Below the pieces are notes generated by a model that did not search any database, was not told the origin of the DNA, and saw only the letters and a program-made list of their open reading frames with translations. Shown in pieces: positions 9,118-25,316 of a DNA stretch of 64,000 nt; positions within the stretch are counted from its first letter, which is position 1; the number at the start of each line of letters is the position of its first letter. The position numbers and the translations under genes are program-made. Source of the stretch: Clostridiales bacterium (GTDB taxonomy: Bacteria; Bacillota; Clostridia; Lachnospirales; Lachnospiraceae); contig JAAYPT010000048.1 of assembly GCA_012519695.1 (NCBI GenBank), positions 1 through 64,000 on the forward strand, in the 5' to 3' direction.

Positions 9118-9149
9118 GGAATGAGAAGAATATAGAAAGGAAGACAGTG

Positions 9150-10079
9150 ATGAGTAAAATAGCAGAACATTTAACAGAACTGATAGGAAAGACTCCATTA
9201 TTAGAGCTGACCAATTATGAAAAAGAAAATGAACTGGAAGCAAAAATAATCGGAAAATTGGAATATTTCAATCCATTAGGAAGTGTCAAGGATCGTGTTG
9301 CTTATGCCATGATTGAGGACGGAATAAAAAAAGGCAAGATTAATAATGAAACAGTCATTATCGAACCAACCAGTGGAAACACAGGAATCGGGCTTGCATT
9401 TGTAGCAGCATCTAAGGGCTTACACTTAATTCTTACCATGCCGGATACCATGAGTGTAGAACGTAGAAAAATCGTTTCCGCATTAGGAGCTGAAATTGTT
9501 CTGACACCGGGAAAAGAAGGAATGAAGGGTGCCATTGCAAAGGCAGAGCAGTTAAAAGAAGAATACGGAAATGCCATTATCCCACAGCAGTTTGAAAATG
9601 CAGCAAATCCGGCAATTCATAAAGAAACAACTGCAAAAGAAATCTGGGAAGACACCGACGGAAAGGTAGACATCTTTGTTTCCGCAGTAGGAACCGGAGG
9701 AACATTGACCGGAACCGGAGCAGGATTAAGAGAAAAGAATCCGGATGTAAAAATTATTGCAGTAGAGCCAAAGGATTCCGCAGTACTTTCCGGAGGAAAG
9801 CCGGGACCACATAAGATTCAGGGAATCGGAGCAGGATTTGTACCAAAAGTATTGGATACCCAATTGATTGATGAGATTATACCGGTAGAAAATGAAGCAG
9901 CATTCCAGACGGCAAGAAAAGTAGCCAAAACAGATGGTTTGTTGGTTGGAATTTCATCAGGAGCAGCACTTTATGCAGCAGATGTATTAGCAAGAAGACC
10001 GGAAAATAAAGGCAAAAACATTGTAGTTTTATTACCGGATACAGGAGAACGTTATTTATCCACTGCATTGTTTGAATAG
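9150..10079 (+). CDS. cysK: Cysteine synthase A (O-acetylserine sulfhydrylase)
   Basis: PLP enzyme of 309 residues making L-cysteine from O-acetylserine and sulfide. The PLP lysine lies in [14 protein letters not shown], the substrate loop is [13 protein letters not shown], the phosphate-binding region is [11 protein letters not shown], and GISSGAA follows near the C-terminus. The length is typical of CysK. A GTG at 9147 directly precedes the ATG at 9150; I take the ATG, six bases after GGAAG. As the second gene of the sulfur operon it is the cysteine branch of sulfide use and may also be the partner of the adjacent CymR-like regulator. Confidence 0.93.
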
Positions 10080-10096
10080 AATCAGGAGGAGCATTT

Positions 10097-11119
10097 ATGA
10101 GAAAGAAGGCAACAAGGATAACCGTTACGATTCTTGCAGCGGTGTTGGCGATGACATCTCTGACAGCTTGCGGAAAAAAGAAAAATAGTGATGGAACACT
10201 GACGCTAACCAATGTTTCTTATGATCCGACCCGAGAACTGTATGAGGAATACAATCAGGCCTTTGAGAAGCATTACAAGGAAGAACATGGAAAAGATATT
10301 AAGATTATTCAATCTCATGGAGGCTCCGGCAGTCAGGCGAGATCCGTAGTGGAAGGCAGTGATGCAGATGTGGTAACATTGGCACTTGCTCATGATATTA
10401 GCCTGATAGAAAAGTCCGGGCTCATCGAACCGGGATGGATAGAAGAATTTGACGGAAACTCTGCACCTTATACATCTACCATTGTGTTTTTAGTACGCAA
10501 GGGAAATGAAAAAGGAATCGAAGATTGGGATGACTTGGTGAAAAAGGGTGTAGATGTCATAACACCGGACCCAAAGAGTAGTGGCGGAGCTTGTTGGAAC
10601 TTTCTGGCTGCATGGGAATATGCCAGTGAAAAATATGATTCAGAAAAGAAAGTAAAGAAATTTGTAACAGATTTATATCAGAATGTATCTGTTATGGATT
10701 CCGGAGCGAGAGGAGCTACAACGACTTTTGTAGAAAACGGACAGGGAGATGTGCTGATTGCATGGGAAAATGAAGCAATTACAGCAATGAAGGAATATCC
10801 GGGAAAATATGAAATTGTAACTCCAAGTGTTAGTATTCTGGCAGAACCTAATGTTGCGATTGTAGATGCCAATGCAAAAAAAGATAACACTCAGGAAGCG
10901 GCAAAGGAATATTTGCAATACTTATATTCAGATGAAGCACAAAGAATTATTGGAGAAAATGGATATCGGCCAACAAATCCGGATATTTTACAGGAATTTT
11001 CCGATAAGTTTGATTTGAACGTTAAGTTATGTACCATAGATGATTTTGGCGGCTGGGATGAAGCCTACGAAAAGTTTTTCACCGATGGCGCGATTTTTGA
11101 TGAAATATATGATAATTAA
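10097..11119 (+). CDS. sbp: Sulfate/thiosulfate-binding lipoprotein of ABC importer
   Basis: Solute-binding protein of 340 residues. Its lipoprotein signal ends in LTAC with the lipidated cysteine at residue 25. The mature protein starts with the family pattern [20 protein letters not shown], and [31 protein letters not shown] and [11 protein letters not shown] are sulfate-pocket segments of the Sbp/CysP family. It would capture sulfate or thiosulfate outside the membrane and pass it to the CysT/CysW permeases encoded next. The start follows AGGAGG. Sulfate and thiosulfate specificity cannot be told apart from sequence. Confidence 0.92.
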
Positions 11120-11149
11120 GTAGAATGACTAGGAGAAAGAGGAGAAACC

Positions 11150-11998
11150 ATGAAAGGGTTAAGGAGGCAAAAACAGGCAAAAACCTGTAGGGTCATACCG
11201 GGATTTGGACTTAGTATGGGAGTGACAGTTACCATGTTGTCATTGCTGGTATTGATTCCACTGGCATCAGTTTTAATTTATTCCATGAAGTTATCACCGG
11301 AAGAATTTTTTCAGCTGATTGGAAGAAAAGAAGTAAGAAGTGCATTTTCCACCAGTATCATGTGTTCCTTCATCGCAGCTGTGGTAAATTGTGTATTTGG
11401 AGTGATTTTGGCATGGATATTAGTTCGGTATGAATTTCCGGGAAAACGATTATTAGATGGCTTGATAGAACTTCCGTTTGCATTACCAACAGCGGTTGCC
11501 GGAATCACCTTATCTAAGATGTATGCAGATACCGGTTTTCCGGGAAAATATTTAGCAAAGCTTGGAATACAGGTGTCCTACACGAAGATAGGTCTTACCA
11601 TAGCGTTGATATTTGTGGGAATCCCATTTGTAGTAAGAGCAATCCAGCCTATATTAGAAAAGCTGGATCCCTCCTATGAAGAAGCAGGAAATATGTTGGG
11701 AGCAAGCAAGGCAAGAATTTTTCGAAAAATAATTTTACCGGAGCTTCGCCCGGCATTGCTAACCGGATTTGGCTTAGCCTTTGCAAGAGGTGTAGGAGAA
11801 TACGGAAGTGTCATTTACATATCAGGAAATAGTGCAAGAAAGCATACACAGGTAGTTTCCTATGTAATTATGCAAAAGCTCAATTATGTAGATTATGCTG
11901 CTGCAACAGCCATTGCACTGGTAATGTTGATTTTATCCTTTTTGATTTTATTTTTGGTAAATATGGTGCAGGTACATCAGGCAAAACGAACAGCATAA
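11150..11998 (+). CDS. cysT: Sulfate ABC transporter permease CysT
   Basis: Permease of 282 residues with six membrane helices, the CysT/CysU subunit. The segment LPFALPTAVAGITLSKMY is typical for the family, and the EAA loop reads EEAGNMLGASKARIFRKIIL. It lies between the binding protein and CysW genes, in the canonical order of a sulfate importer. The N-terminus is rich in lysine and arginine on the cytoplasmic side, in line with positive-inside topology. The gene is intact. Confidence 0.92.
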   Translation: MKGLRRQKQAKTCRVIPGFGLSMGVTVTMLSLLVLIPLASVLIYSMKLSPEEFFQLIGRKEVRSAFSTSIMCSFIAAVVNCVFGVILAWILVRYEFPGKRLLDGLIELPFALPTAVAGITLSKMYADTGFPGKYLAKLGIQVSYTKIGLTIALIFVGIPFVVRAIQPILEKLDPSYEEAGNMLGASKARIFRKIILPELRPALLTGFGLAFARGVGEYGSVIYISGNSARKHTQVVSYVIMQKLNYVDYAAATAIALVMLILSFLILFLVNMVQVHQAKRTA

Positions 11999-12008
11999 GG
12001 AGGAAGAC

Positions 12009-12863
12009 ATGGAGAAAAAAGAACAGAAAAAACGGAGTAAAACAGAAATTATACTGATTACCGTGGGCGTACTTTTTATTGTCTGTATGCTGGTATTGCC
12101 ATTGATATCGGTAGTAACCAATTCATTAAAAGAGGGGATTCAATTTTACTTTCAGTCCTTAGCATCCGAATATGTAGTGTCTGCTCTGGGAGTAACATTG
12201 CTTGCAACTGTCATAGTCGTAGTAGTAAATACATTTTTTGGAATCATGGCAGCGTGGTTATTAACAAAATTTTCCTTCCGGGGAAAACATATTTTAGCAA
12301 CTTTAATAGATATTCCATTTTCTATTTCACCAGTTATTGCAGGACTTGCATTTTTGATGACATTTGGAAGACTTGGGTGGGCAGGAAAATACATTGAAAA
12401 AATCAATGAAGCACTTGGAACAGATATTAAAATTGTATTTGCAATTCCCGGTGTAATACTTGCCACCATATTTGTTACATTTCCATTTGTATCAAGAGAA
12501 ATCATTCCGGTATTGAATGCGCAGGGAAAAGAAGAGGAAGAAGCGGCAACCTTGATGGGAGCCAGCGGATTTCGGATTTTCCGAAAAATTACATTACCTC
12601 ATATGAAATGGGCATTACTCTATGGAATTATCCTTTGTACAGCCCGAGCACTGGGAGAATTTGGAGCAGTAAATGCATTATCTAAGACCCGAGGCGAAAC
12701 TTTTACTTTACCACTGGAAATCGATGCATTATACTTATCTGGGTCGGCTGATTCAATTACAGCTGCATTTGCAGTATCATCCTTACTGGTTATCATAGCA
12801 GTGTTGGTATTGGTATTACGAAATTTTGTAGAATATAAGTCAAAGAAAAAAGGAAAGGCATAG
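12009..12863 (+). CDS. cysW: Sulfate ABC transporter permease CysW
   Basis: Second sulfate permease, 284 residues, six helices, 10 bp after cysT with GGAGG before the ATG. Characteristic parts are IDIPFSISPVIAGLAFL and the EAA loop EEEAATLMGASGFRIFRKIT, followed by ARALGEFGAVNALS, all as in CysW. It forms the membrane channel with CysT. The charged N-terminus (MEKKEQKKRSKTE) is cytoplasmic. Confidence 0.92.
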   Translation: MEKKEQKKRSKTEIILITVGVLFIVCMLVLPLISVVTNSLKEGIQFYFQSLASEYVVSALGVTLLATVIVVVVNTFFGIMAAWLLTKFSFRGKHILATLIDIPFSISPVIAGLAFLMTFGRLGWAGKYIEKINEALGTDIKIVFAIPGVILATIFVTFPFVSREIIPVLNAQGKEEEEAATLMGASGFRIFRKITLPHMKWALLYGIILCTARALGEFGAVNALSKTRGETFTLPLEIDALYLSGSADSITAAFAVSSLLVIIAVLVLVLRNFVEYKSKKKGKA

Positions 12864-12874
12864 GAGGTGAAGGC

Positions 12875-13936
12875 ATGTACGTTGAAATGAAAGATATTGA
12901 AAAACATTATGGAGATTTCAAAGCATCGGATCATGTAAACTTTGGAATCGAAAAAGGAAAGCTGGTAGCATTACTGGGACCAAGCGGAAGTGGAAAAACA
13001 ACCATACTTCGTATGCTGGCAGGATTAGAGAATCCGGACTCAGGAGACATTCTCATTGACGGAAAAAGAATCAATGACATTCCGGCAGCAAAACGAGATA
13101 TTGGGTTTGTATTTCAAAATTATGCATTGTTTCGATATATGACAGTATTTGATAACATTGCCTTCGGCCTTGAAGTACAAAAGGTGCCAAAAGCTCAGAT
13201 TAAAGAGCGAGTAATGGAACTGATTCAGCTAACAGGACTTTCCGGAATGGAAAAGCGTTATCCAAGTCAGTTGTCAGGAGGACAGAGACAAAGAGTTGCT
13301 TTTGCAAGAGCCCTTGCTCCCAATCCACAGGTACTTCTTTTAGATGAACCGTTTGCAGCCATAGATGCGAAGGTAAGAACAGAACTTCGTAACTGGTTGA
13401 AAGATATGATACATAAAGTTGGAATTACCAGTATTTTCGTTACTCATGATCAGGATGAAGCAGTAGAAGTAGCAGATGAGATTATCATTACCAATCATGG
13501 AAGAATTGAACAGACCGGAACTCCAATGGAAATATATAAAACACCGGAAACCCCGTTCGTAGCACAGTTTATTGGAAAATCTACCGTAGTAAGTCACTAT
13601 GAACAATTAAATGGATTTGATTCTGTGGCAGGAGCATCTCAGGCAGTAATTCGACCGGAGTTTGTGAGAGTTTCTAAGAGCGGAAGACTAGAACAGTATA
13701 TGAGTGCGGCAGAAGAAGGTACCGTGGAAGAAGTGGTATTCCGGGGAAATCATTTAGAGCTTACCATTAACATTAAAGGAATTTCCATTAAGGCAGAGCG
13801 TTCCTTGGAAAAAGATCCGGTAAGTGTAGGAGAAAAAGTACAGGTATTGATTTATCGATTGTACATTTTTGATGAGAACAGAACTTATCTGATGGAAAAC
13901 AGCGCAATGCAGGAGAACGATGTATTCTATATCTAG
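12875..13936 (+). CDS. cysA: Sulfate/thiosulfate ABC importer ATPase CysA
   Basis: ATPase of 353 residues. Walker A GPSGSGKTT, Q-loop FQNYALFRYMTV (the FRYMTVFDNIAFGL stretch is typical of CysA), signature LSGGQRQRVAFARAL, Walker B LLLDEPFAAIDAKVR and H-loop FVTHDQDEAVE are all present. A TOBE-like C-terminal domain carries IRPEFVRVSKSG. The start follows TAGGAGGTGA. It completes the sbp-cysTWA importer that feeds sulfate to the enzymes encoded downstream. Confidence 0.94.
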   Translation: MYVEMKDIEKHYGDFKASDHVNFGIEKGKLVALLGPSGSGKTTILRMLAGLENPDSGDILIDGKRINDIPAAKRDIGFVFQNYALFRYMTVFDNIAFGLEVQKVPKAQIKERVMELIQLTGLSGMEKRYPSQLSGGQRQRVAFARALAPNPQVLLLDEPFAAIDAKVRTELRNWLKDMIHKVGITSIFVTHDQDEAVEVADEIIITNHGRIEQTGTPMEIYKTPETPFVAQFIGKSTVVSHYEQLNGFDSVAGASQAVIRPEFVRVSKSGRLEQYMSAAEEGTVEEVVFRGNHLELTINIKGISIKAERSLEKDPVSVGEKVQVLIYRLYIFDENRTYLMENSAMQENDVFYI

Positions 13937-13945
13937 GAGGCAGTT

Positions 13946-15655
13946 ATGAAGATTCAGAACAAGAAAATAATCCATACGGATGTTTTGATTATAGGTGGTG
14001 GAACCGCTGGATGTTATGCAGCACTTACCATTCGGGAACAGTCCAATCTGTCGGTTGTAATTGCAGAAAAGGCAAACATCAAACGAAGCGGTTGTCTGGC
14101 AGCAGGAGTAAATGCCATCAATGCTTATATCGTAAAGGGACGTAAACCGGAAGATTATGTGGATTATGCAAAAAAAGATGCAGATGACATTGTAAGAGAA
14201 GATTTGCTTCTTACCATGTCAGAAGGATTAAACCGTGTTACAGCAAAATTAGAACAATTAGGACTTGTGATTTTAAAGGATGAAAACGGAGAATACGTTG
14301 CAAGAGGAAATCGAAATATCAAGATTAATGGAGAAAACATTAAGCCGATTTTAGCAGATGCAGTAAAAGAATTAGAAGATGTAACCGTAATCAATCACTT
14401 AAATATCACAGATTACATAGTAAAAGACAATCAGATTTTGGGTGCATTTGGATTTAGTATAGAAGATGGAACTGCTTATGAGATAAGAGCAAAATCAGTG
14501 ATTTGTGCTACCGGAGGAGCTTCTGGATTATATAAGCCAAATAATCCGGGATTTTCCAGACATAAGATGTGGTATCCACCATTTAATACAGGAGCCGGAT
14601 ATGCCATGGGAATTCGTGCAGGTGCAGAAATGACAACCTTTGAGATGCGTTTCATCGCACTACGATGCAAAGATACCATTGCACCAACCGGAACTATCGC
14701 ACAGGGTGTAGGAGCAAAACAGGTAAATGCGTTAGGCGAAGTATACGAGAACAAATACGGACTTACCACTTCACAACGTGTATACGGAACAGTAAAAGAA
14801 AACTTAGAAGGACGCGGACCGTGTTACCTTCGTACAGAAGGAATTACACCAAAGCAGGATGAGGAGCTGTTAAAGGCATATTTAAATATGGCACCTAGCC
14901 AGACCTTAAAGTGGATAGAAGCAGGAAAAAATCCAAGTCAGCAAAATGTGGAAATCGAAGGAACAGAACCTTATGTAGTAGGCGGTCATACAGCCAGTGG
15001 TTACTGGGTAGATACCAATCGTCAAAGTACCATTCAGGGATTGTATGCAGCAGGAGATGTAGCAGGAGGATGTCCACAAAAATATGTAACCGGTGCTCTT
15101 GTGGAAGGTGAGATTGCAGCAGAAGCTATTGTACATAGCAATAACCAACTTACAAAGCAATACGAAGAACACAAGCTTACGGAACAGGAAGAAGAACAAC
15201 TTCTTACAGAAAAAGTGCAGGAATATGATAAGATTTTAAATGAAAAACAGCCGATGTTTACAGTAGAACAGTTAGAAGAAGCAATGCAAAAGGTAATGGA
15301 CACCTATGCAGGAGGAATCGGAAGTCACTATCAGTTCAATGAAAAACAGCTTTCTCTGGCAGAAGAGAAAATCAACCAGATTGAGCAGTTAGCAGAAGGT
15401 TTAAGTGCAGAAGATATGCACGAGCTGATGTTTGTATATGAATTAAAAGAACGACTTACCGTATGTAAGGTATTGATTGCACACTTAAGAGCCAGAAAAG
15501 AGACCAGATGGCATAGTTTTGCCGAGAATCTGGATTATCCGGAAAAAAGTGATGAATGGTTAAAATATGTAAACTCCCGTATGGAGGATGGAAAGATTCA
15601 GATCATATACCGAGATTTGGTAGAGAGAGGAGAACAGTATGAGCATAGTCATTAA
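13946..15655 (+). CDS. aprA: Adenylylsulfate (APS) reductase flavoprotein subunit, AprA-like
   Basis: FAD protein of 569 residues. The dinucleotide fold DVLIIGGGTAGCYAALTI starts at about residue 12; RSGCLAAGVNAINAYI, CATGGASGLYKPNN and TGALVEGEIAAEA are family segments, as is the pocket around MWYPPFNTGAGYAMG. AprA reduces APS to sulfite and AMP. It is followed by an AprB-like ferredoxin and CysDN, so APS made by CysDN is reduced here without PAPS. No PAPS reductase or APS kinase gene is present. The protein is slightly smaller than dissimilatory AprA (about 650), in line with the assimilation-linked forms known in Clostridia. Confidence 0.85.
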   Translation: MKIQNKKIIHTDVLIIGGGTAGCYAALTIREQSNLSVVIAEKANIKRSGCLAAGVNAINAYIVKGRKPEDYVDYAKKDADDIVREDLLLTMSEGLNRVTAKLEQLGLVILKDENGEYVARGNRNIKINGENIKPILADAVKELEDVTVINHLNITDYIVKDNQILGAFGFSIEDGTAYEIRAKSVICATGGASGLYKPNNPGFSRHKMWYPPFNTGAGYAMGIRAGAEMTTFEMRFIALRCKDTIAPTGTIAQGVGAKQVNALGEVYENKYGLTTSQRVYGTVKENLEGRGPCYLRTEGITPKQDEELLKAYLNMAPSQTLKWIEAGKNPSQQNVEIEGTEPYVVGGHTASGYWVDTNRQSTIQGLYAAGDVAGGCPQKYVTGALVEGEIAAEAIVHSNNQLTKQYEEHKLTEQEEEQLLTEKVQEYDKILNEKQPMFTVEQLEEAMQKVMDTYAGGIGSHYQFNEKQLSLAEEKINQIEQLAEGLSAEDMHELMFVYELKERLTVCKVLIAHLRARKETRWHSFAENLDYPEKSDEWLKYVNSRMEDGKIQIIYRDLVERGEQYEHSH

Positions 15656-15953
15656 CCAAAAGAAATGTGTGGGATGCAGAAAATGTATGCAGGTATGTCC
15701 AGGAACCTTAATTAAGGCGAATGAGAATGGCAAGGCATACATCAAATACCCAAAAGACTGCTGGGGCTGTGTCTCCTGTGTAAAAGAATGTCAGTTTGAT
15801 GCCATTGATTTTTATCTTGGTGCCGACATTGGAGGAATGGGAAGCAAGATGAATGTAACAAGTAAAGGGGATATGATTTACTGGAATATTACCAAGTCTT
15901 GTGGAGAAAAACAAACCATAGAAATTGATAGAACAAAGTCAAACCAATACTAG
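15639..15953 (+). CDS. aprB: 4Fe-4S ferredoxin subunit of APS reductase, AprB-like
   Basis: A 104-residue iron-sulfur protein with two C-x2-C-x2-C-x3-C clusters: [13 protein letters not shown] near residue 9 and [12 protein letters not shown] near residue 41. It overlaps aprA by 17 bp, so the two are translationally coupled and very probably form the reductase dimer, with the ferredoxin passing electrons to the FAD. It is shorter than dissimilatory AprB (about 150 residues) and lacks most of its C-terminal tail. The electron source is not encoded as an obvious reductase in this operon. Confidence 0.82.
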
Positions 15954-15969
15954 AAAAAAGGAGAAAAAT

Positions 15970-16869
15970 ATGAGCGAATTATCACATCTTGATGAATTAG
16001 AAGCAGAAGCCATCTACATCATCCGTGAGGTGGCGGCAGAATGCGAAAAGCCGGTAATGTTATATTCTATTGGAAAGGACAGTTCCGTTATGCTTCATCT
16101 GGCACTGAAAGCTTTCTATCCGGAGAAGCCACCTTTTCCGTTTTTACATGTAAACACTACCTGGAAGTTTAAAGAAATGATTGAGTTCCGTGACAAGGTA
16201 GCACAAAAATACGGAATCGAAATGTTAGAGTACATTAACCAGGATGGTGTAAAGCAGGGAATCAACCCATTTGATCATGGTTCTGCTTATACCGATATTA
16301 TGAAAACACAGGCATTGAAACAGGCATTAAATAAATACGGATTTACCGCAGCATTTGGTGGTGGAAGACGTGACGAAGAAAAGTCCAGAGCAAAAGAAAG
16401 AATCTTTTCCTTCCGAAACGAAGCACAGGCATGGGATCCGAAAAATCAAAGACCGGAAATGTGGAAGTTATATAACACCAAGATTCATAAAGGGGAAAGT
16501 ATTCGAGTATTCCCAATTTCCAACTGGACAGAAAAGGATATCTGGCAGTATATTAAACGAGAAAATATCGATATCGTACCATTGTATTTTGCAAAAGAAC
16601 GTCCGGTAGTATACCGAGATGGAAACATCATTATGGTAGATGATGACAGAATGAGACTTCGTCCGGGAGAAAAAATCGAACATAAGAGTATTCGATTCCG
16701 TACCTTGGGTTGCTACCCACTAACCGGAGGTGTAGAGTCCACAGCAACTACTTTGGATGAGATTATAGAAGAAACCTTGAGTGCAGTATCCTCAGAGCGA
16801 ACCAGCCGAGTAATTGATAATGAAGAGGCTGGAAGCATGGAAAGAAGAAAAAGGGAGGGATATTTCTAA
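15970..16869 (+). CDS. cysD: Sulfate adenylyltransferase subunit 2
   Basis: PP-loop ATP pyrophosphatase of 299 residues that forms APS from ATP and sulfate together with CysN. The PP-loop is [15 protein letters not shown] near residue 32. [20 protein letters not shown] and [10 protein letters not shown] are typical CysD segments, and the tail REGYF ends as in the family. I use the ATG at 15970 ([11 protein letters not shown]) because AAGGAGAA precedes it; an upstream in-frame ATG at 15925 lies inside aprB and has no ribosome site. Confidence 0.94.
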
Positions 16870-16870
16870 G

Positions 16871-18568
16871 ATGAGCGGATTATTAAAATTTATTACTTGC
16901 GGAAGCGTAGACGATGGAAAGTCCACCTTAATCGGACATATTTTGTATGATGCAAAATTGTTATATGCAGATCAGGAAAAAGCATTGGAATTAGACAGTA
17001 AGGTAGGAAGTCGTGGAGGAGCTATTGACTATTCTTTATTACTGGATGGACTTATGGCAGAAAGAGAACAGGGAATTACCATTGATGTGGCATATCGTTA
17101 TTTTACCACAGACAATCGTAGCTTTATTGTAGCCGATACTCCGGGACATGAAGAGTACACCAGAAATATGGCAGTAGGAGCTTCCTTTGCAGACTTAGCG
17201 GTTATCTTGGTAGATGCAAAGCAAGGTGTATTGGTACAGACCAGAAGACATGCAAGAATCTGTTCCTTAATGGGAATTCGTTATTTTGTATTTGCAGTAA
17301 ACAAAATGGATTTGGTAGGATATGATGAAAAACGATTCAAAGAAATCGAAGCACAGATTGCAGAACTTACCAAAGAATTAAAACTTGCAAGTGTAAAAAT
17401 CATTCCGGTATCAGCAACCGAGGGGGATAACGTTACAGAAAAGTCTCCAAATATGCCATGGTATGAAGGAGAAGCATTGCTTCCATATTTGGAGCAGGTA
17501 GATGTTTCCGAAAAGTCCAAAGAAGAAGGATTTTATCTTCCGGTACAGCGTGTATGCCGACCAAATCATACCTTCCGTGGTTTTCAGGGACAGGTGGAAT
17601 CGGGAAGCATTCAGGTGGGTGATGTAATTACAACTTTGCCAAGCCGTGAAGAAGCAAAAGTAAAGAGTATTTTAGTAGGGAACAAAGAAAGTCAGAGTGC
17701 TGTAAAAGGCAATCCGGTTACCATTCAGTTAGATAAAGAAGTGGATGTTTCCAGAGGATGTGTATTGGTAAATGGAAGTGACCTTCCGGTAAGCAATCAC
17801 ATTGTGGTAACTCTTTTGTGGATGGATGACGAAGAACTTGTTATCGGAAAAGATTATCTGGTAAAATTAGGAACGAGACAAATTCCGGGTGTATTAACTG
17901 CAATTAAACATAAAATTGATGTAAATTCCGGTGAATTTATCGAAACAGACCATTTAGTAAAAAATGAAATTGCATTATGCGAGATTTCCTTACAGGAAAA
18001 CATCGTAGTGGATGTATTCTCTCGTCACAAGACATTAGGAGAATTGATTTTAATTGACAGAATCACCAATATGACCTCTGCCTGCGGTGTAGTAGAAGAA
18101 GTAAAGCAGGGACAGGAAGATGGAAACTATTCTTTCGTAGCCGGAGATATTAAGGCAAGAGGTGATGTTTTCGAAGAGTTCTATTACAATATGGAGAGCT
18201 TAAATATTGCCAAGGCAAAACCGGTAAAAGACATTTATACCGTAGGTGATACCATTCCGGTTAAGGGAGAAAGCTATCATTACCCGGATAACTTTGATAT
18301 TTTAGTACTTCGTGATAAAGTAGTAGTAGAAATTAGAGAAGAGAAAGTAGCAGCAATTAAATTGATTTCCGAATACAATTATAGTGGTTATCCATTAGTA
18401 AACGGAAGAGGATTTGCAATCGGCGTAGAATCCAAAGAGCAGTATGAAGAATTCCTTGCAGATGTGAAGAAGACAGGAGAAAATCCGGATGCGGAACTTA
18501 TGGATAAGTGGATGAAGTTTGAAACATATCGTAGCATTACATTCCATGATAATTTCTGGATTATTTAA
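16871..18568 (+). CDS. cysN: Sulfate adenylyltransferase subunit 1 (GTPase)
   Basis: EF-Tu-like GTPase of 565 residues that drives APS synthesis by CysD. G1 GSVDDGKSTLIGHIL, G2/G3 REQGITIDVAYRYF and DTPGHEEYTRNM, and G4 NKMD are present, followed by beta-barrel domains. The length exceeds the usual ~475 of stand-alone CysN. The C-terminal ~130 residues (ESLNIAKAKPVKDIYTVGDT onward) are not an APS kinase domain, since no second P-loop is seen. The ATG at 16871 is used, with GGGAGGGA upstream; it starts 1 bp after the cysD stop. Confidence 0.92.
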   Translation: MSGLLKFITCGSVDDGKSTLIGHILYDAKLLYADQEKALELDSKVGSRGGAIDYSLLLDGLMAEREQGITIDVAYRYFTTDNRSFIVADTPGHEEYTRNMAVGASFADLAVILVDAKQGVLVQTRRHARICSLMGIRYFVFAVNKMDLVGYDEKRFKEIEAQIAELTKELKLASVKIIPVSATEGDNVTEKSPNMPWYEGEALLPYLEQVDVSEKSKEEGFYLPVQRVCRPNHTFRGFQGQVESGSIQVGDVITTLPSREEAKVKSILVGNKESQSAVKGNPVTIQLDKEVDVSRGCVLVNGSDLPVSNHIVVTLLWMDDEELVIGKDYLVKLGTRQIPGVLTAIKHKIDVNSGEFIETDHLVKNEIALCEISLQENIVVDVFSRHKTLGELILIDRITNMTSACGVVEEVKQGQEDGNYSFVAGDIKARGDVFEEFYYNMESLNIAKAKPVKDIYTVGDTIPVKGESYHYPDNFDILVLRDKVVVEIREEKVAAIKLISEYNYSGYPLVNGRGFAIGVESKEQYEEFLADVKKTGENPDAELMDKWMKFETYRSITFHDNFWII

Positions 18569-18582
18569 GGAGGTAACAACAG

Positions 18583-19827
18583 ATGGTAGAATCAGCAGGA
18601 TTTAATACCTCATTATTACATAGCTGTCAAGAAGGCGATAAAAGTACAGGAGCAACACTGACACCGATTTTTCAGTCCAGTGCGTTCTATCAACCTTCTG
18701 CCAGCCAGCATGAAAAGTTATTTCACAATCAGGCACCGGGATATTCTTATACAAGATTAGGAAATCCAACCATTACAGCCTTTGAAGAAAGAATGACAAA
18801 GTTAGAAGGCGGTGTGGCTTCTATCGCATGTGCCTCCGGTATGGCAGCATTGACCAATGCACTGTTGAATATTTTACAGGCTGGAGATGAAATTGTCTCC
18901 AGTGCCAGCCTGTATGGCGGCAGTATTGATTTGTTTCGGGATTTAGAGGCATTTGGAATACACACCATTTATGTGCGAAATAACGATTGGAAACAGATTG
19001 AGGAAAGCATTACAGAAAAAACCAGAGTTATTTTTGCAGAAACCATTGGAAATCCAAGATTAGATGTAACAGATATTCGCTCCTTAAGCGAATTGGCACA
19101 TAAGCATGGACTTCCACTGATTATGGATAATACCGTTGCTACTGCATATCTGGTAAAACCATTAGAGCTGGGAGCGGATATCGTAATCAATTCCACCTCT
19201 AAGTACATCAACGGTCACAGCGATGCCATTAGCGGAGTAATTACCGATGGTGGAAGTTTTAAATGGGATGTAGAAAAATATCCGGGAATGAAAGAATTTA
19301 AGAAGTTTGGTAAATTTGCCTATACAGCAAAGCTTCGTAACGGATTGTTCCGAAACACCGGAGCATGTATGGCACCACAGACAGCTTATTATAATCTTCT
19401 TGGTATAGAGACCTTAGGACTTCGTATGGAGCGAGAGTGTGAAAATGCTTATAAACTTGCGGAATATTTAGATAGTTTAGACGGTATTGAAGTAAATTAT
19501 CCGGGACTTGCAAAAAGTCCATATCATACAATTGCAAAAGAAGAATTGGTAAGAGGATTCGGAGCGATTCTTACCATTCGTGTAGGAAGTAAGGAACGTG
19601 CATTTTCTATAATGGATCAATTAAAGATTCCAATGATTGTTTCAAATATAGGAGATACTAAGTCATTGGTTATCCATCCGGAATCAACATTGAATGTACA
19701 CAGTACAGAGGAAGAAAAAGAAAGTGCCGGAGTATTTGATGATTTGATTCGAATTAGTGTCGGAATTGAAGATATCGAAGATTTAATTGAAGATTTTAAA
19801 CAAGCAATCGAAAACAGCAACCAATAA
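18583..19827 (+). CDS. metY: O-acetylhomoserine sulfhydrylase (MetY), PLP enzyme
   Basis: Cys/Met-metabolism PLP enzyme of 414 residues. Segments are YTRLGNPTITAFEERM, CASGMAALTNALL, ETIGNPRLDVTD, and the PLP lysine in NSTSKYINGHSDAISG (about residue 206). MetY replaces the acetyl group of O-acetylhomoserine by sulfur to give homocysteine. It precedes sulfite reductase and a thiocarboxylate carrier system; in Wolinella succinogenes MetY takes sulfur from such a carrier rather than from free sulfide. Free-sulfide use and cystathionine-type reactions cannot be excluded from sequence. Confidence 0.88.
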   Translation: MVESAGFNTSLLHSCQEGDKSTGATLTPIFQSSAFYQPSASQHEKLFHNQAPGYSYTRLGNPTITAFEERMTKLEGGVASIACASGMAALTNALLNILQAGDEIVSSASLYGGSIDLFRDLEAFGIHTIYVRNNDWKQIEESITEKTRVIFAETIGNPRLDVTDIRSLSELAHKHGLPLIMDNTVATAYLVKPLELGADIVINSTSKYINGHSDAISGVITDGGSFKWDVEKYPGMKEFKKFGKFAYTAKLRNGLFRNTGACMAPQTAYYNLLGIETLGLRMERECENAYKLAEYLDSLDGIEVNYPGLAKSPYHTIAKEELVRGFGAILTIRVGSKERAFSIMDQLKIPMIVSNIGDTKSLVIHPESTLNVHSTEEEKESAGVFDDLIRISVGIEDIEDLIEDFKQAIENSNQ

Positions 19828-19854: not shown

Positions 19855-20715
19855 ATGGCAGTTGATTATGGAGCATTAAAAAAAGGCGGCTTCATGCGTC
19901 AGAAACAAAAAAATAATTTTTCTTTAAGGTTACAGGTGGTAGGAGGAACTCTTACCGCAGAAAACCTTAAAATCATTGCAGAGGTAGCAGAAAAATATGG
20001 TGATGGTCATGTTCATCTTACCTCTCGTCAGGGAGTGGAAATTCCATTTATCAAACTTGATGATATTGATGAAGTAAAGGAAGAACTGGCAAAGGGAGAC
20101 TGTCATCCGGGTGTATGTGGTCCTCGTGTTCGTACCGTTACCGCCTGTCAGGGGTCTGAAATCTGTCCAAGCGGAAATATTGATTCTTATAAAATTGCAT
20201 TGGAACTGGATAAACGGTATTTTGCAAGAGAATTGCCTCATAAGTTTAAGTTTGGTGTAACAGGATGTCAGAACAACTGCTTAAAGGCAGAAGAAAATGA
20301 CGTAGGAATCAAAGGAGCACAAATCGTAAACTGGAAAAAAGAAGACTGCATTATGTGCGGTGTCTGTGAGAAGGCCTGTCGTGAAGGTGCCATTACCATT
20401 CAGAACGGCAATATCACCCTGGATGAGCAAAAATGTAATAACTGCGGAAGATGTGTAAAGTCATGTCCAACCGATGCATGGGAAGGAACTCCGGGATTTA
20501 TGGTATCCTTCGGAGGAACTTTCGGAAATCATATCAGTGAAGGAAAGTCTTTACTTCCTGTTATTACAAGTGAAGAACAGTTGTATCGTGTAACAGATGC
20601 AGCAATTCAGTTCTTTGATGACTATGCAAATCCGGGAGAAAGATTTAAGTTTACCATTGACAGAGTAGGCGTTGACAAATTAGAAAAAGTATTGAAGGAG
20701 GCATATAATGGCTGA
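19855..20715 (+). CDS. Compact siroheme sulfite reductase with fused 2x[4Fe-4S] ferredoxin domain
   Basis: A 286-residue enzyme expected to reduce sulfite to sulfide with six electrons. The siroheme/4Fe-4S ligands are C98-x5-C104 in TACQGSEICPSGN and C138-x3-C142 in GCQNNCLKA. A ferredoxin insert follows with C165/168/171/175 and C194/197/200/204. The N-terminal half carries LTSRQGVEIP, as in sulfite and nitrite reductases. The size matches the small AsrC/Fsr-C-type enzymes rather than the ~550-residue assimilatory CysI. Its place between MetY and TusA/carrier genes makes it the sulfide source of the operon. It overlaps tusA by 8 bp. Confidence 0.85.
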   Translation: MAVDYGALKKGGFMRQKQKNNFSLRLQVVGGTLTAENLKIIAEVAEKYGDGHVHLTSRQGVEIPFIKLDDIDEVKEELAKGDCHPGVCGPRVRTVTACQGSEICPSGNIDSYKIALELDKRYFARELPHKFKFGVTGCQNNCLKAEENDVGIKGAQIVNWKKEDCIMCGVCEKACREGAITIQNGNITLDEQKCNNCGRCVKSCPTDAWEGTPGFMVSFGGTFGNHISEGKSLLPVITSEEQLYRVTDAAIQFFDDYANPGERFKFTIDRVGVDKLEKVLKEAYNG

Positions 20716-20953
20716 TTATGTAATTGATGAAAGAGTAGATATTACCGATGTGGTTTGCCCAATGACCTTTGTAAAGGCAAAAGTGGCAATGGAAGAATTG
20801 GAAATTGGTCAGGTACTTGCAATTACCATGAATGATGGTGAGCCGGTACAGAACGTACCAAGAAGTTTTAAAGAAGAAGGTCAGCAGATTTTAAAACTGA
20901 TTGATAATGAAAACGGAACTTATGATTTGATAGTGAAAAAGTTAGAAGACTAG
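20708..20953 (+). CDS. TusA-family sulfurtransferase
   Basis: An 81-residue protein with the TusA (SirA-like) fold pattern: VDITDVVCPMTFVKAKVAME, whose C-P-x-x motif has the sulfur-accepting Cys at position 17, then MNDGEPVQNVPRSFKEEG and a beta-strand end. TusA proteins carry persulfide sulfur between enzymes. The start overlaps the sulfite reductase gene by 8 bp, so it may pass the reduced sulfur from the reductase to the E1/carrier pair or simply modulate sulfur flux. The partner is inferred from position only. Confidence 0.85.
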   Translation: MADYVIDERVDITDVVCPMTFVKAKVAMEELEIGQVLAITMNDGEPVQNVPRSFKEEGQQILKLIDNENGTYDLIVKKLED

Positions 20954-21298: not shown

Positions 21299-21508
21299 AT
21301 GAAAGCAACAATCGCAGGAGTAAACAAAGAAATCGCAGAAGGAACAACAATTGCAAAATTAATCGTGGATGAAAAAGTAGAAAACGCAGAATATGTAACT
21401 GTTACCTTGAACGACGACTTCTTAGACAAGGAAGCATTTGAAACTACAGTCATCAAAGAAGGAGATAATATCGAATTCTTATACTTCATGGGAGGAGGAG
21501 CTTTTTAA
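21299..21508 (+). CDS. hcyS: ThiS/MoaD-like sulfur carrier protein with masked C-terminus (HcyS-like)
   Basis: A 69-residue ubiquitin-like beta-grasp protein. Sulfur carriers end in Gly-Gly, which is adenylated and thiocarboxylated; here the tail is MGGGAF, so Ala68-Phe69 follow the glycines and must be removed. That matches HcyS of Wolinella, which carries an extra C-terminal residue cut off by the metalloprotease HcyD. The E1-like enzyme starts at the last base of this gene and a JAMM protease follows. The carrier would supply sulfur to MetY. The assignment rests on tail, neighbours and family knowledge; a role in thiamin synthesis is less likely because no thiG or thiH is near. Confidence 0.75.
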   Translation: MKATIAGVNKEIAEGTTIAKLIVDEKVENAEYVTVTLNDDFLDKEAFETTVIKEGDNIEFLYFMGGGAF

Positions 21509-22314
21509 TGGCATTTACAAGTGAACAAATGGAGCGCTACTCCAGACACATTATTTTACAGGAAGTCGGCGTAAAGGGACAGAAGAAACTGTTAAACAGT
21601 AAAGTCCTGATTATCGGTGCCGGCGGATTAGGAGCACCGGCAGCAATGTATCTTGCAGCAGCAGGTGTAGGAACCATCGGAATTGCCGATGCAGATGAAG
21701 TGGATTTATCCAATCTTCAAAGACAGATTATCCATGCAACCAAAGATGTTGGTAAGGCAAAGGTAAAATCAGCAAAAGAAACCATCAATGAGATGAACCC
21801 GGATGTAACTGTAAATACATATCGTACCTTTGTTACGTCAGAAAATATTATGGACTTAATCAAAGACTATGACTTTATTATTGATGGAACAGATAATTTT
21901 CCGGCAAAATTCTTAATAAACGATGCTTGTGTTATGGCGAAAAAGCCATTTTCCCATGCCGGAATCATTCGTTTTCAGGGACAGTTAATGACTTATGTTC
22001 CGGGAGAAGGACCATGCTATCGTTGTGTATTTAAGAATCCACCACCAAAGGACGCAGTACCAACCTGTAAGCAGGCAGGTGTTATCGGAGCTATGGGTGG
22101 AGTTATCGGAAGCCTTCAGGCAATGGAAGCAATTAAATATATCGTAGGTGTAGGAGATCTTTTAACAGGAAAGCTTTTAACTTACGATGCATTGAAAATG
22201 GAATTCCGTACCGTAAAATTACCAAAGAAAGTAAAAGATTGTCCAATTTGTGGAGAACACCCAACAATTACACAGTTGATTGATTATGAGCAGATAGAGT
22301 GTGACGGAAAATAA
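21508..22314 (+). CDS. hcyF: E1-like adenylyltransferase of ThiF/MoeB/HesA family (HcyF-like)
   Basis: A 268-residue enzyme that would adenylate the C-terminal glycine of the neighbouring carrier. Nucleotide fold G37-A-G-G-L-G42, acidic loop DADEVDLSNLQRQ, Asp in IIDGTDN and a likely catalytic Cys187 in VPTCKQAG are visible. Two C-x2-C pairs (C170/C173 and C245/C248) bind structural zinc. No rhodanese domain is fused, so sulfur probably comes from free bisulfide or TusA. The start (21508) overlaps the last base of the carrier stop codon, pointing to a fixed pair. Confidence 0.83.
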   Translation: MAFTSEQMERYSRHIILQEVGVKGQKKLLNSKVLIIGAGGLGAPAAMYLAAAGVGTIGIADADEVDLSNLQRQIIHATKDVGKAKVKSAKETINEMNPDVTVNTYRTFVTSENIMDLIKDYDFIIDGTDNFPAKFLINDACVMAKKPFSHAGIIRFQGQLMTYVPGEGPCYRCVFKNPPPKDAVPTCKQAGVIGAMGGVIGSLQAMEAIKYIVGVGDLLTGKLLTYDALKMEFRTVKLPKKVKDCPICGEHPTITQLIDYEQIECDGK

Positions 22315-22334: not shown

Positions 22335-22748
22335 ATGTTATATTTAAAACAGCAGGATTATGAAAAAATACTGGAACATTGCAAAAAAGGATTACCAAAT
22401 GAGTCTTGTGGGCTTATTGGTGGCAGAAAAGAAGAAGAAAATCAGTATGTAGAAAAAGTATATCTGCTGACAAATGTGGATGCAAGTCGCGAGCATTTTT
22501 CTATGGATCCAAAGGAACAGTTAGCAGCCGTAAAGGATATGCGCACCAATGGTTATGAACCTTTAGGAAATTTCCATTCGCATCCGGAATCTCCTTCTCG
22601 TCCATCTGAAGAAGATAAGAGACTTGCGTATGATTCAAAGGCAAATTATTTAATTCTTTCTTTAATGGAGGAAAACAATCCGGTTTTAAAGGCTTTTCGG
22701 ATTGACGAGGAGAAAAATGTAACAATAGAGCCAATTGAAATAATTTGA
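22335..22748 (+). CDS. hcyD: JAMM/MPN+ metalloprotease (HcyD/Mec+ type)
   Basis: A 137-residue zinc protease. The JAMM motif is complete: Glu23 (NESCGLIGG), His81-Ser-His83, Ser91 and Asp94 (HSHP...PSEED). Bacterial enzymes of this type trim residues from the C-terminus of ThiS-like carriers, or release cysteine or homocysteine joined to the carrier. Here it is last in the operon, behind a carrier with a GGGAF tail, so it likely removes Ala-Phe and then frees homocysteine from the carrier. The start follows AAGGAGGAG. Confidence 0.83.
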   Translation: MLYLKQQDYEKILEHCKKGLPNESCGLIGGRKEEENQYVEKVYLLTNVDASREHFSMDPKEQLAAVKDMRTNGYEPLGNFHSHPESPSRPSEEDKRLAYDSKANYLILSLMEENNPVLKAFRIDEEKNVTIEPIEII

Positions 22749-22826: not shown

Positions 22827-25316
22827 GTGAGAGAAGAACTATTCCAGCCGAGAGAACTGAAAAGACAGCGGATTAATGAGTGCCTCGCAGAGGCAGTCAA
22901 GTTGCCACTGTGCATTGTGCAGGCATCCGCAGGAATGGGGAAGAAGACTGCCGTACGAGATTTTTTAGAAGAAGCAGGAGTACGATATTTTTGGTATTCT
23001 TTAAAAGAAGACCAATGTGATGATGAATGGATATGGAAACGAATCACAGAAGTTCTCGCACAGGAAGTAAAGGAAGAAGTGCGAGAATTTCTGGAAACTT
23101 GTTTCCCAAAGACCCCACAGGAAAGACAGAATTTTATACATCAGCTAAATCGAAGCGTACAAAAAGAAACAATCATAGTAATTGAAAATGAATATCAGGA
23201 CACCCACAGCGAAGAATTTGATTTTTTGCTGGAAGACATTGCTGAGGCAGAGTTAGAACATCTGCATATTGTTTTAATCTGTCAGCGATTGTCTGGTTTT
23301 CGTTGTGGTAAGCTGATTTTAGATAGAAAATGTACTGTAATTCGTAAGAATATATTGAGTTTTACAGAAGAAGAAATCGGCACCTATTTTAAAATCAATG
23401 GGATAGATTTACCCTTTAAGGAAAGAAAGGCAATCTATCAATATACAGAAGGCTGGACTTCTGTCATATGTCTGATTTTAATTGATTATATGCGAACCGG
23501 AGAATTAAACAGCTTTTTCAGTGCATGGAATTTTATGAAGGAATTGGTATTTGATGAGTTATCTGAGACAGAACGTGAGATTATTATGAAATTGTCTCCA
23601 CTTGAGAATTTTACCATGCAGGAAGCAATTTATGTGACACAGATGCCGGAGTGCCGAATAGAATTACAGAATTGTGCATTAGAGACTAATTTTATGGAAT
23701 ACGATATGGTGACTCGAACATTTCGACTTCACCATTTATTGCGATTAATTGCAGAAAAAGAATATACAGATCGAGGAAATTCTGTAAATGAAGTTTGGAA
23801 ACGTTCTGCTATGTGGGAAGAGCGTCAGGGAAAAATGACGGTCGCAATTCAAAATTATATTAAAATAGGTGAAGAACAGGAAGTTTTCCGTGTATTAGAA
23901 AGTGAAAATGCATTAGAACTTTATCGAACCATACCCAAGGTATTTGAAAACTTTTTCAGAGGTGTATCAGTAGAAGAAAAGTTGACGCATTTAAAGGCAT
24001 ATTTAATATATATTTATTACTGGGAAGTATATGGCGTAATGGAAAATGCCCGTAGAGATTTTCAAGAGACTGAGAAATACTTTTATGAAAAAGGAATGGA
24101 TAAAAATCCTCAAAATAAGCGAATGTTAGGTGAAATGCTGATTATGCGCAGCATTATGAGTATTGATGATGTGGGCAAAATGGCAGAGACAATCCAACAG
24201 GCTTATGAAGTGTTAGATGGAAGACCATCTGAGATATTTAACGAGCGGTTTATTGCTATGTTTATGGTACCGGAGCTATATGGAATTTATTATAGCGAGG
24301 CAGGAAAACTTCTGAGTTCCATTGAAAAGATAAAAGAGTTCAGCAGATATTACCTGGCACTGGTGAATGCAAAGGATTCCGGTTGGGAATGGATGGCAGA
24401 AGGTGAGTACTGTTATTTAATGGGCGATGTGCAAAAAGCCGTGGAAATCAGTGAAATTGCTTTTCAGAAGGCTTGTTTCCGCAAGGAAGCAGCGGCGATT
24501 ATTAGTACCGCATTCTTAAAAATGAAGTGTTACATATATCTTGGAAAATATACAGAATTGGTGGAATGCCTCAATGTATTAGAAGAGGCAGGAAGTGCCA
24601 TCAATAAAAGAGAAACCATTACAGTGCTGTATGATTTGGTAAATGGATATATCCGACAGTGTATGGGAGAACCGGGAATTGCAGAATGGCTTAAGAATTA
24701 TGAGCTTATTTCCTATAATAATTACTTTAAAATTACCTGTGCAGGAAGTGTTACCTACGGTAGAATTTTGATGGAAGAAGGAAAATATGCACAATTGACA
24801 GCTATTGCAGAAGATATGATGGAGTATCAGGAATGGAGCTCTAGCTGTTATTTACGGATAAAGGGCGGAGTTTATCTGACTATCGCCAAATACCATCTTT
24901 TCGGAGAAGAGGCAGCCAGAGAAGAATTAGAGAAAGTACTGAAAGTGGCACAAAAAGATGAACTGGTTGCATTGTTTATGGAGAATGCCGGAGAGCTTTT
25001 GCCAATTTTGAAGTTAGTAGAAGATGAAGAGATAGACCGAGAGTACCTTAAAATGGTGATTTTTCATTGCCAGCAGTATCAGACAGGTCAGAATCTTGTT
25101 TTGAATAAGGGAGAAGGTCAAAAAGAAGCAAGTTTGTTGACAGAGCGAGAATTAGAGATTCTTCAGCTTGTCAAAACCGGTTATAAAAACGGTGAAATTG
25201 GAAAAACTTTAAATATAGCTACTGTTACGGTAGAAAAAGCATTATCCAATATATATCGAAAGTTAAATGTAAAAGGAAGAACTGAGGCAGTAAAAAAAAT
25301 AGAAAAAGTATTGTAA
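22827..25316 (+). CDS. MalT/LuxR-like STAND transcriptional regulator with degenerate P-loop
   Basis: An 829-residue regulator: N-terminal NTPase (about 25-300), a long helical repeat region (about 330-730) and a C-terminal LuxR helix-turn-helix (about 765-829; LLTERELEILQLVKTGYKNG, KLNVKGRTEAVKKI). The Walker A segment reads ASAGMGKKT at residues 33-41: lysine 40 stands where Ser or Thr normally binds Mg-nucleotide. Walker B is weak too (IIVIENEY). ATP use may therefore be altered. The start is GTG at 22827 after GGGAGAAG. It follows the sulfur operon by 78 bp; whether it controls it or the downstream ldh is unknown. Confidence 0.8.
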   Translation: MREELFQPRELKRQRINECLAEAVKLPLCIVQASAGMGKKTAVRDFLEEAGVRYFWYSLKEDQCDDEWIWKRITEVLAQEVKEEVREFLETCFPKTPQERQNFIHQLNRSVQKETIIVIENEYQDTHSEEFDFLLEDIAEAELEHLHIVLICQRLSGFRCGKLILDRKCTVIRKNILSFTEEEIGTYFKINGIDLPFKERKAIYQYTEGWTSVICLILIDYMRTGELNSFFSAWNFMKELVFDELSETEREIIMKLSPLENFTMQEAIYVTQMPECRIELQNCALETNFMEYDMVTRTFRLHHLLRLIAEKEYTDRGNSVNEVWKRSAMWEERQGKMTVAIQNYIKIGEEQEVFRVLESENALELYRTIPKVFENFFRGVSVEEKLTHLKAYLIYIYYWEVYGVMENARRDFQETEKYFYEKGMDKNPQNKRMLGEMLIMRSIMSIDDVGKMAETIQQAYEVLDGRPSEIFNERFIAMFMVPELYGIYYSEAGKLLSSIEKIKEFSRYYLALVNAKDSGWEWMAEGEYCYLMGDVQKAVEISEIAFQKACFRKEAAAIISTAFLKMKCYIYLGKYTELVECLNVLEEAGSAINKRETITVLYDLVNGYIRQCMGEPGIAEWLKNYELISYNNYFKITCAGSVTYGRILMEEGKYAQLTAIAEDMMEYQEWSSSCYLRIKGGVYLTIAKYHLFGEEAAREELEKVLKVAQKDELVALFMENAGELLPILKLVEDEEIDREYLKMVIFHCQQYQTGQNLVLNKGEGQKEASLLTERELEILQLVKTGYKNGEIGKTLNIATVTVEKALSNIYRKLNVKGRTEAVKKIEKVL

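What the first reader, a model, noticed from the sequence alone, without database searches (positions are those of the whole stretch)
21299..21508. Sulfur carrier has a dipeptide cap (GGGAF) beyond the active glycines
Active ThiS/MoaD proteins end in GG. Here Ala68-Phe69 follow, so the carrier should be inert until trimmed. A JAMM protease lies two genes on. In Wolinella the cap is a single Ala; a two-residue cap would be a variant.
Basis: partly seen in the sequence, partly recalled or inferred. Interest (0 to 1): 0.62.

Follow-up and report, generated by a model that had tools for sequence, protein, structure and literature searches.

The report
Capped sulfur carrier trimmed by protease
A bacterium related to gut clostridia makes a small sulfur-carrying protein with two extra end residues that a neighbouring protease most likely has to clip off before it can carry sulfur for methionine synthesis; this is a common arrangement in its relatives, and the same clipping may also serve the vitamin B1 carrier of some of them.

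Summary
In detail: the 69-residue ThiS-type carrier at 21299-21508 ends Gly65-Gly66-Gly67-Ala68-Phe69, and an intact JAMM gene lies two genes on. Its sulfate-assimilation operon matches a neighbourhood published in 2006 (ThiS-like carrier, E1 without rhodanese, TusA/SirA, JAMM, O-acetylhomoserine sulfhydrylase). Best reading: the homocysteine-forming protein-thiocarboxylate pathway, with the JAMM removing Ala-Phe. Two-residue caps are not new: 29 of the 80 best named relatives have one, and so does a printed carrier (PtmS2, Met-Val). Beyond the finding: (1) thiamine ThiS with a blocked C-terminus (18 capped, 9 fused to ThiG) lies in genomes with a strong JAMM in 27 of 27 cases, against 0 blocked of 96 ThiS in genomes without one; none of those 27 genomes has a family-2 ThiF above its model's cut-off, so JAMM and E1 may be shared in trans; (2) cap length looks set by translation: the GGG codons resemble the ribosome-binding site of the next gene, whose inferred start lies 4-8 nt on in 124 of 145 loci. 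Against: five capped carriers of other kinds occur in genomes without a strong JAMM, and cleavage was not tested.

The parts
21299..21508 (+). sulfur carrier (HcyS-type ThiS/MoaD-like), 69 aa, ends GGG-Ala-Phe
   Evidence: PF02597, TIGR01683
21491..21499 (+). three Gly codons GGA GGA GGA: functional C-terminus of the carrier and probable Shine-Dalgarno of the next gene
   Evidence: (start of next gene 8 nt on; GGA at the first Gly in 89% of 125 loci, background 35%)
21500..21505 (+). Ala68-Phe69 cap
   Evidence: the same in G005 and G023
21508..22314 (+). E1-like adenylyltransferase (HcyF-type), only a ThiF domain; GAGGLG at 37, CxxC at 170 and 245, Cys187
   Evidence: ATG overlaps the carrier stop (TAATG)
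22335..22748 (+). JAMM/Prok-JAB metalloprotease (HcyD-type), intact E..HxHx7SxxD
   Evidence: PF14464 84.6 bits; nearest solved chain 2kks (159 bits), later 5lda/5ld9 JAMM1 (31 bits)
20708..20953 (+). TusA/SirA-like sulfurtransferase
   Evidence: PF01206
20964..21281 (+). thioredoxin-like protein (CIPC)
19855..20715 (+). sulfite reductase of the asrC-like kind, with 4Fe-4S domains (best model TIGR02912, below its cut-off)
18583..19827 (+). MetY-like O-acetylhomoserine sulfhydrylase, presumed acceptor enzyme
13946..18568 (+). AprA, AprB-like ferredoxin (by eye), CysD, CysN: sulfate activation and APS reduction
9147..13936 (+). CysK-like synthase and a sulfate-type ABC transporter (binding protein, two permeases, ATPase)
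   Evidence: read from the translations, not profiled

Best explanation
This is the carrier of a protein-thiocarboxylate pathway that assimilates sulfate sulfur into homocysteine. It is made with Ala-Phe after its functional Gly-Gly-Gly end. The JAMM protein cuts after the last Gly; the E1 then adenylates that Gly, TusA (or sulfide from the sulfite reductase) supplies sulfur to make the thiocarboxylate, and the MetY-like enzyme transfers it to O-acetylhomoserine. The cap is probably not a conserved inhibitory peptide. The three Gly codons appear to double as the ribosome-binding site of the overlapping E1 gene, whose start lies a few nt on; with the stop and start codons overlapped, the carrier's stop then has to come one or more codons after GGG, and the JAMM makes that tolerable. 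Shown here: cap, gene order, intact active-site motif, co-occurrence, spacing. Inferred: cleavage, inertness of the capped form, sulfur route, product.
For: Operon content fits the type described by Iyer 2006, row 4e (passages read). HcyS-type carriers nearly always have a tail or fusion: family and genus set with the window, 48 of 49, the exception G236 showing no GGG in the frame read (not examined further); phylum sample 32 of 32, three of them fused to the E1; 80 best named loci 80 of 80, JAMM downstream in 74, with 5 of the 6 misses near contig ends. Thiamine ThiS: 27 blocked, all in JAMM genomes; 0 blocked of 96 in genomes without a strong JAMM; 40 uncapped in JAMM genomes. Tree-aware: 10 supported independent pairs, JAMM goes with the cap in 7.3 on average, against it in 0, median p 0.016. 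Spacing: inferred next start 4-8 nt after GGG in 124 of 145 loci; pairing with the anti-Shine-Dalgarno end stronger than with shuffled Gly codons (-11.0 against -9.4 kcal/mol, n=125; control -10.2 against -9.6, n=30).
Against: No biochemistry. Of 12 carriers of other kinds in phylum genomes without a strong JAMM, 5 are capped all the same (G425 I, G436 A, G498 F, G534 L, G538 C), 5 uncapped, 2 unparsed. G057 has a tailed HcyS and no JAMM match (93% complete genome), and named locus L324 has none within 6 kb. 40 JAMM genomes keep an uncapped ThiS. The spacing idea does not cover capped ThiS whose thiG match begins 11-199 nt away (11 of 18), and 21 of 145 HcyS loci lie outside 4-8 nt. The control set also prefers GGA at the first Gly (67%), so common descent explains part of the codon signal. 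In the tree test JAMM did not differ in 2.7 of 10 pairs.
Confidence: 0.8

Rival explanations
1. The cap is a selected safety catch: a regulated pro-form whose trimming by the JAMM controls flux of sulfur into methionine.
For: Caps are mostly short (28 of 48 one residue, 15 two) although a drifting stop codon should give long tails (inference); the residue after GGG is limited (A, S, R, Q, C make 86 of 97, two ThiS-ThiG fusions included); 11 of 18 capped ThiS have no gene overlap.
Against: Cap sequence and length vary freely between genera; in 15 of 18 tails of 4-7 residues the inferred start of the next gene lies inside the tail, which is then that gene's first codons read out of frame; the JAMM lies in the same run of genes as the carrier, leaving little to regulate at that step (inference).
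Confidence: 0.15
2. The E1 and MetY-like enzyme use the capped carrier directly, or a general carboxypeptidase trims it, and the JAMM instead releases a product or conjugate, as Mec+ does with CysO-cysteine (recalled).
For: Five capped carriers of other kinds occur in genomes without a strong JAMM; in two of these a family-M20 peptidase gene follows the cysteine-synthase-like gene.
Against: None of 96 thiamine ThiS from genomes without a strong JAMM is capped; nine ThiS-ThiG and three HcyS-E1 fusions, which a carboxypeptidase could hardly resolve, are all in JAMM genomes.
Confidence: 0.1
3. A protein-modifier (ubiquitin-like) system: the trimmed carrier is conjugated to target proteins by the E1 and removed by the JAMM.
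For: Best NCBIfam match of the JAMM is a haloarchaeal desampylase (86.8 bits, below its 130 cut-off); the E1 resembles UbaA and Uba4.
Against: The neighbouring genes profiled are sulfate-assimilation enzymes and I saw no E2-like gene among the profiled ones; JAMM and E1 are below the desampylase and SAMP-E1 cut-offs.
Confidence: 0.04

Closest known systems
[quoted passage not shown] title seen in reference lists, content recalled)
   Same: Carrier, E1, JAMM and O-acetylhomoserine sulfhydrylase; capped carrier (recalled)
Iyer and others 2006, neighbourhood type 4e (PMC1779556, passages read)
   Same: ThiS/MoaD-like, JAB, E1 without rhodanese, SirA/TusA, sulfate ABC transporter, reductases, O-acetylhomoserine sulfhydrylase
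   Different: The passages I saw did not discuss short C-terminal caps or co-occurrence of capped ThiS with a JAMM in trans
PtmS2/PtmS3 with JAMM PtmS1 (PMC6006322, passages read); QbsD is named there as the model protease, the QbsE cap is recalled
   Same: Carriers capped after GG, PtmS2 by two residues (MV), PtmS3 by one (C); a JAMM protease expected to expose GG
   Different: Thiocarboxylic natural products, not methionine; other operons; in that work the caps were removed by cloning
DRJAMM cutting the MoaD-MoaE fusion in Deinococcus (PMC8832034, passages read)
   Same: JAMM frees a sulfur carrier's terminal Gly from a fused partner
   Different: Molybdopterin synthase, not ThiS-ThiG or HcyS-E1
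PfJAMM1-SAMP2 (5lda, 5ld9)
   Same: JAMM sequence match 31 bits; recognises SAMP2 whatever follows its terminal Gly (as cited in PMC8832034)
   Different: Archaeal modifier system

Membership tests
Protein-thiocarboxylate homocysteine pathway (HcyS/F/D type; Iyer type 4e operon) | ThiS/MoaD-family carrier with terminal Gly motif | tested here: met
   PF02597 and TIGR01683 above cut-off
Protein-thiocarboxylate homocysteine pathway (HcyS/F/D type; Iyer type 4e operon) | E1-like protein without rhodanese domain | tested here: met
   268 aa, ThiF the only Pfam domain above its cut-off
Protein-thiocarboxylate homocysteine pathway (HcyS/F/D type; Iyer type 4e operon) | SirA/TusA gene in the operon | tested here: met
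   PF01206 at 20708-20953
Protein-thiocarboxylate homocysteine pathway (HcyS/F/D type; Iyer type 4e operon) | JAMM with intact zinc and Glu/Ser motif | tested here: met
   E23, HSHPESPSRPSEED at 81
Protein-thiocarboxylate homocysteine pathway (HcyS/F/D type; Iyer type 4e operon) | O-acetylhomoserine sulfhydrylase-type acceptor enzyme in the operon | tested here: met
   PF01053 above cut-off; best NCBIfam model TIGR01326, 449.5 bits, below its 495.1 cut-off
Protein-thiocarboxylate homocysteine pathway (HcyS/F/D type; Iyer type 4e operon) | JAMM removes the cap; thiocarboxylate feeds MetY | not testable with these tools
   needs mass spectrometry and enzyme assay
Thiamine ThiS (TIGR01683 equivalog) | thiG beside the gene | tested here: not met
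   No thiG match within 1.5 kb (L001); the genome has a separate uncapped thiS beside thiG (G000:C82). The carrier does score above the TIGR01683 cut-off
CysO/CysM/Mec+ cysteine pathway | carrier gene next to a CysM-type synthase | tested here: inconclusive
   A CysK-like gene lies 11 kb upstream in the same island (by eye); the MetY-like gene is nearer
SAMP/desampylase modifier system | match above the desampylase and SAMP-E1 models | tested here: not met
   86.8 bits against 130 and 339.8 against 450

The most novel reading that the evidence does not exclude
In some Bacillota one JAMM and one E1, encoded with the sulfate/methionine genes, mature and charge more than one sulfur carrier in trans: the operon's own HcyS and a thiamine ThiS that has lost both a free C-terminus (short cap or fusion to ThiG) and its own family-2 ThiF. 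Where HcyS was not found, as in six sister species of the window's genus, the capped ThiS may be the only carrier for both pathways. Once a JAMM is present, stop codons can move and genes can overlap or fuse, so caps are scars of translational coupling and stop-codon loss rather than signals, and they lock the cell into needing the protease.
Probability: 0.55. Interest if true: 0.6.

Novelty: new member of a known kind. Interest (0 to 1): 0.42.

Why it matters
The local feature is ordinary for its family. The wider pattern gives a simple genomic predictor (a blocked thiamine ThiS implies a JAMM in the genome), predicts that losing one protease could cause a double need for methionine and thiazole, and suggests that small carriers that databases would name ThiS need processing in a number of gut clostridia. 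It also offers a cheap explanation of why caps exist and vary: gene overlap with an embedded ribosome-binding site.

Tried and rejected
Rejected: sequencing error (same tail in two sister genomes); artefact of a wrong stop (the E1 start overlaps exactly and the spacing recurs); cap as a conserved peptide (more than 30 different tails); cap explained by absence of an adjacent ThiF alone (15 of 15 genomes of the family set with neither adjacent thiF nor strong JAMM are uncapped).

Led nowhere: plasmid tblastn of the carrier, no match; papers with two of HcyS/HcyD/HcyF, none; three paper searches drowned by word-start hits on 'this' or 'hcys'; Krishnamoorthy and Begley 2011 is not held. No structure prediction was run.

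Limits: 'strong JAMM' means PF14464 of 50 bits or more (family and genus set; weaker matches up to 44.1 bits counted as absent) or 60 bits or more (phylum set). The 80 phylum genomes used as JAMM-less were not a random draw: the 17 outside the window's family that the list printed without a match, then genomes with weak matches (up to 28.4 bits) in handle order as far as G563; genomes with about 30-50 bits were left out. Weak matches near 20-30 bits may be RadC (my guess, not tested). Four uncapped ThiS-like rows were left out of the 99-row count because no thiG was in the fetched stretch (G168, G171, G293) or the type was unclear (G029); all four lack a strong JAMM. The tree had 161 rows, two dropped for short ThiG. 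The Fisher values (3.9e-12; 0.005) ignore relatedness; the tree test does not, but used a quick tree. Start codons were chosen by my own rule (in frame, 4-20 residues before the RYSRH-like motif, ATG preferred); one of the 145 rows (L184) has no tail. Named and unnamed sets overlap (L291 looks like G023, L329 like G150, L363 like G042, judged from contig length and place), so they are not independent.

Full report
What is there. The window holds a sulfate-assimilation island on the + strand. By eye from the translations it starts with an Rrf2-like regulator, a CysK-like synthase and a sulfate-type ABC transporter; then come AprA, an AprB-like ferredoxin, CysD, CysN, a MetY-like O-acetylhomoserine sulfhydrylase, an asrC-like sulfite reductase, TusA, a thioredoxin, the carrier, the E1 and the JAMM (the AprB-like one by eye). 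The carrier is 69 aa and ends GGG-Ala-Phe. Its stop codon overlaps the E1 start (TAATG). The JAMM has Glu23 and HSHPESPSRPSEED at 81. Its closest solved chain is 2kks (159 bits); 5lda/5ld9 JAMM1 follow at 31 bits. The carrier's closest solved chain is 2k5p/3cwi, named ThiS; in the alignment its GGG too is followed by a residue, Lys.

The carrier family. In a sample of 397 genomes of the same family, 108 have a match to the carrier; 25 of 29 of the genus have one. Two kinds separate. HcyS-type carriers, as a rule next to this E1: 49 rows with the window, 48 with a tail after GGG (28 of one residue, 15 of two, 5 longer; Arg 14, Cys 9, Gln 5, Ala-Arg 5, Ala-Phe 3) and one (G236) with no GGG in the frame read, which I did not examine further. 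In the phylum sample 29 of 32 are tailed and 3 are fused to the E1 itself. So Ala-Phe is one of many caps.

Test in trans. Thiamine-type ThiS (thiG beside it) gives a separate test because the JAMM is not next door. Family and genus set, 99 rows: 17 blocked (15 capped, 2 fused to ThiG), all 17 in genomes with a PF14464 match of 50 bits or more; 82 uncapped, 11 in such genomes. Phylum set: 39 ThiS in JAMM genomes, of which 3 are capped and 7 fused to ThiG; 25 in genomes without a strong JAMM, none blocked. Together 27 of 27 blocked ThiS have a strong JAMM in the genome, and 0 of 96 ThiS without one are blocked. On a ThiG tree of 159 rows the blocked state needs 15 changes; in 10 supported independent pairs the JAMM goes with it in 7.3 on average, against it in 0, does not differ in 2.7, median p 0.016 (alone had 5 pairs and could not reach significance). 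Family-2 ThiF (TIGR02354 above cut-off) is present in 0 of 27 genomes with blocked ThiS, in 18 of the 38 (of 40) uncapped JAMM genomes examined and in 0 of 15 JAMM-less genomes chosen for lacking an adjacent thiF. In six species of the window's own genus ThiS is capped (SQ, SR, SK) and no HcyS was found. I read out three of their six JAMM neighbourhoods: in L091 and L092 the JAMM sits beside an HcyF-like E1, a PP-loop protein (in L091 TtcA-like, 200.8 bits, below its 272 cut-off; in L092 by eye) and a MetY-like gene, in L091 with a CysK-like gene as well; in L095 no E1 was found beside it. These data favour one shared JAMM and E1 for several carriers; they do not show it.

Why a cap at all. 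I measured the distance from the last Gly codon to the inferred E1 start in 145 non-identical loci (144 tailed). It is 4-8 nt in 124: tails of one residue mostly 5 (56 of 66), of two residues 8 (31 of 52) or 5 (12), of three to six residues 4 in 14 of 20, of seven residues 7 (2 of 2); the four tails of eight or more residues lie at 22-77. A GGG-ended carrier with the same TAATG overlap would leave 2 nt. The first Gly codon is GGA in 89% of 125 loci against 35% in the background, giving ATGGGAGG; pairing to the anti-Shine-Dalgarno end is stronger than with shuffled Gly codons. The control, 30 uncapped ThiS with the next gene at least 40 nt away, shows a weaker effect but also 67% GGA, so descent contributes. 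Single-residue caps are encoded by a codon one base from a stop in 54 of 66 cases (18 of 61 sense codons qualify), which suits an origin by loss of the stop codon; related rows inflate this count. The overlap idea does not explain the 11 of 18 capped ThiS with a more distant next gene.

Results against. In phylum genomes without a strong JAMM, 12 carriers are of neither kind: 5 capped (G425, G436, G498, G534, G538), 5 uncapped, 2 unparsed; in JAMM genomes such carriers are 7 capped and 4 uncapped of 11. In G425, G498 and G534 a cysteine-synthase-like gene follows, and in G498 and G534 an M20 peptidase gene comes next. So caps can exist without a strong PF14464 JAMM, perhaps with another peptidase. 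G057 and L324 are tailed HcyS without a JAMM found. Forty JAMM genomes keep an uncapped ThiS.

Compared with what is known. Iyer 2006 (passages read) lists this operon type (row 4e), noted ThiS-ThiG fusions in other bacteria, and suggested that JAB domains might free carriers from fusions. PMC6006322 (passages read) reports carriers capped by two residues (PtmS2) and one (PtmS3) and says that capped carriers typically require a protease such as QbsD. PMC8832034 (passages read) reports a JAMM that cuts a MoaD-MoaE fusion. The details of the Wolinella pathway and the QbsE cap are recalled. In my paper searches (listings, and passages of five papers) I saw no report of capped thiamine ThiS tied to a JAMM in trans or of GGG codons as ribosome-binding site; the library lacks most subscription journals.

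Verdict. The trans pattern and the spacing rule are the parts worth following.

Noticed in passing
G000:C82 39939-40136 (L002): The window genome's thiamine thiS is uncapped; its sisters G005 and G023 have thiF between thiS and thiG, but here the thiG match begins 126 nt on and no family-2 ThiF above cut-off is found in the genome. The operon's E1 may have taken over.
   Followed up: partly
L286 (G498), L225 (G534): Carriers capped by Phe or Leu, followed by a cysteine-synthase-like gene and an M20 peptidase gene, in genomes without a strong JAMM: a possible replacement for the JAMM.
   Followed up: partly
L266 (G535), L246 (G624), L271 (G762): HcyS fused to the E1 with GGG inside the chain; a JAMM match follows at or within 280 nt of the end.
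   Followed up: no
L153 (G219), L156 (G179) and seven phylum-sample loci: ThiS-ThiG fusions, all nine in genomes with a strong JAMM.
   Followed up: partly
L091, L092: JAMM and HcyF-like E1 beside a PP-loop protein and a MetY-like gene in genus members where no HcyS was found.
   Followed up: partly
window 22827-25316: Large regulator-like protein (829 aa, LuxR-type C-terminus by eye) directly after the JAMM; it may regulate the island.
   Followed up: no
L231 (G514): Carrier with the tail CCQPKCC after GGG, a cysteine-rich cap unlike the others, near a membrane-protein-like gene.
   Followed up: no
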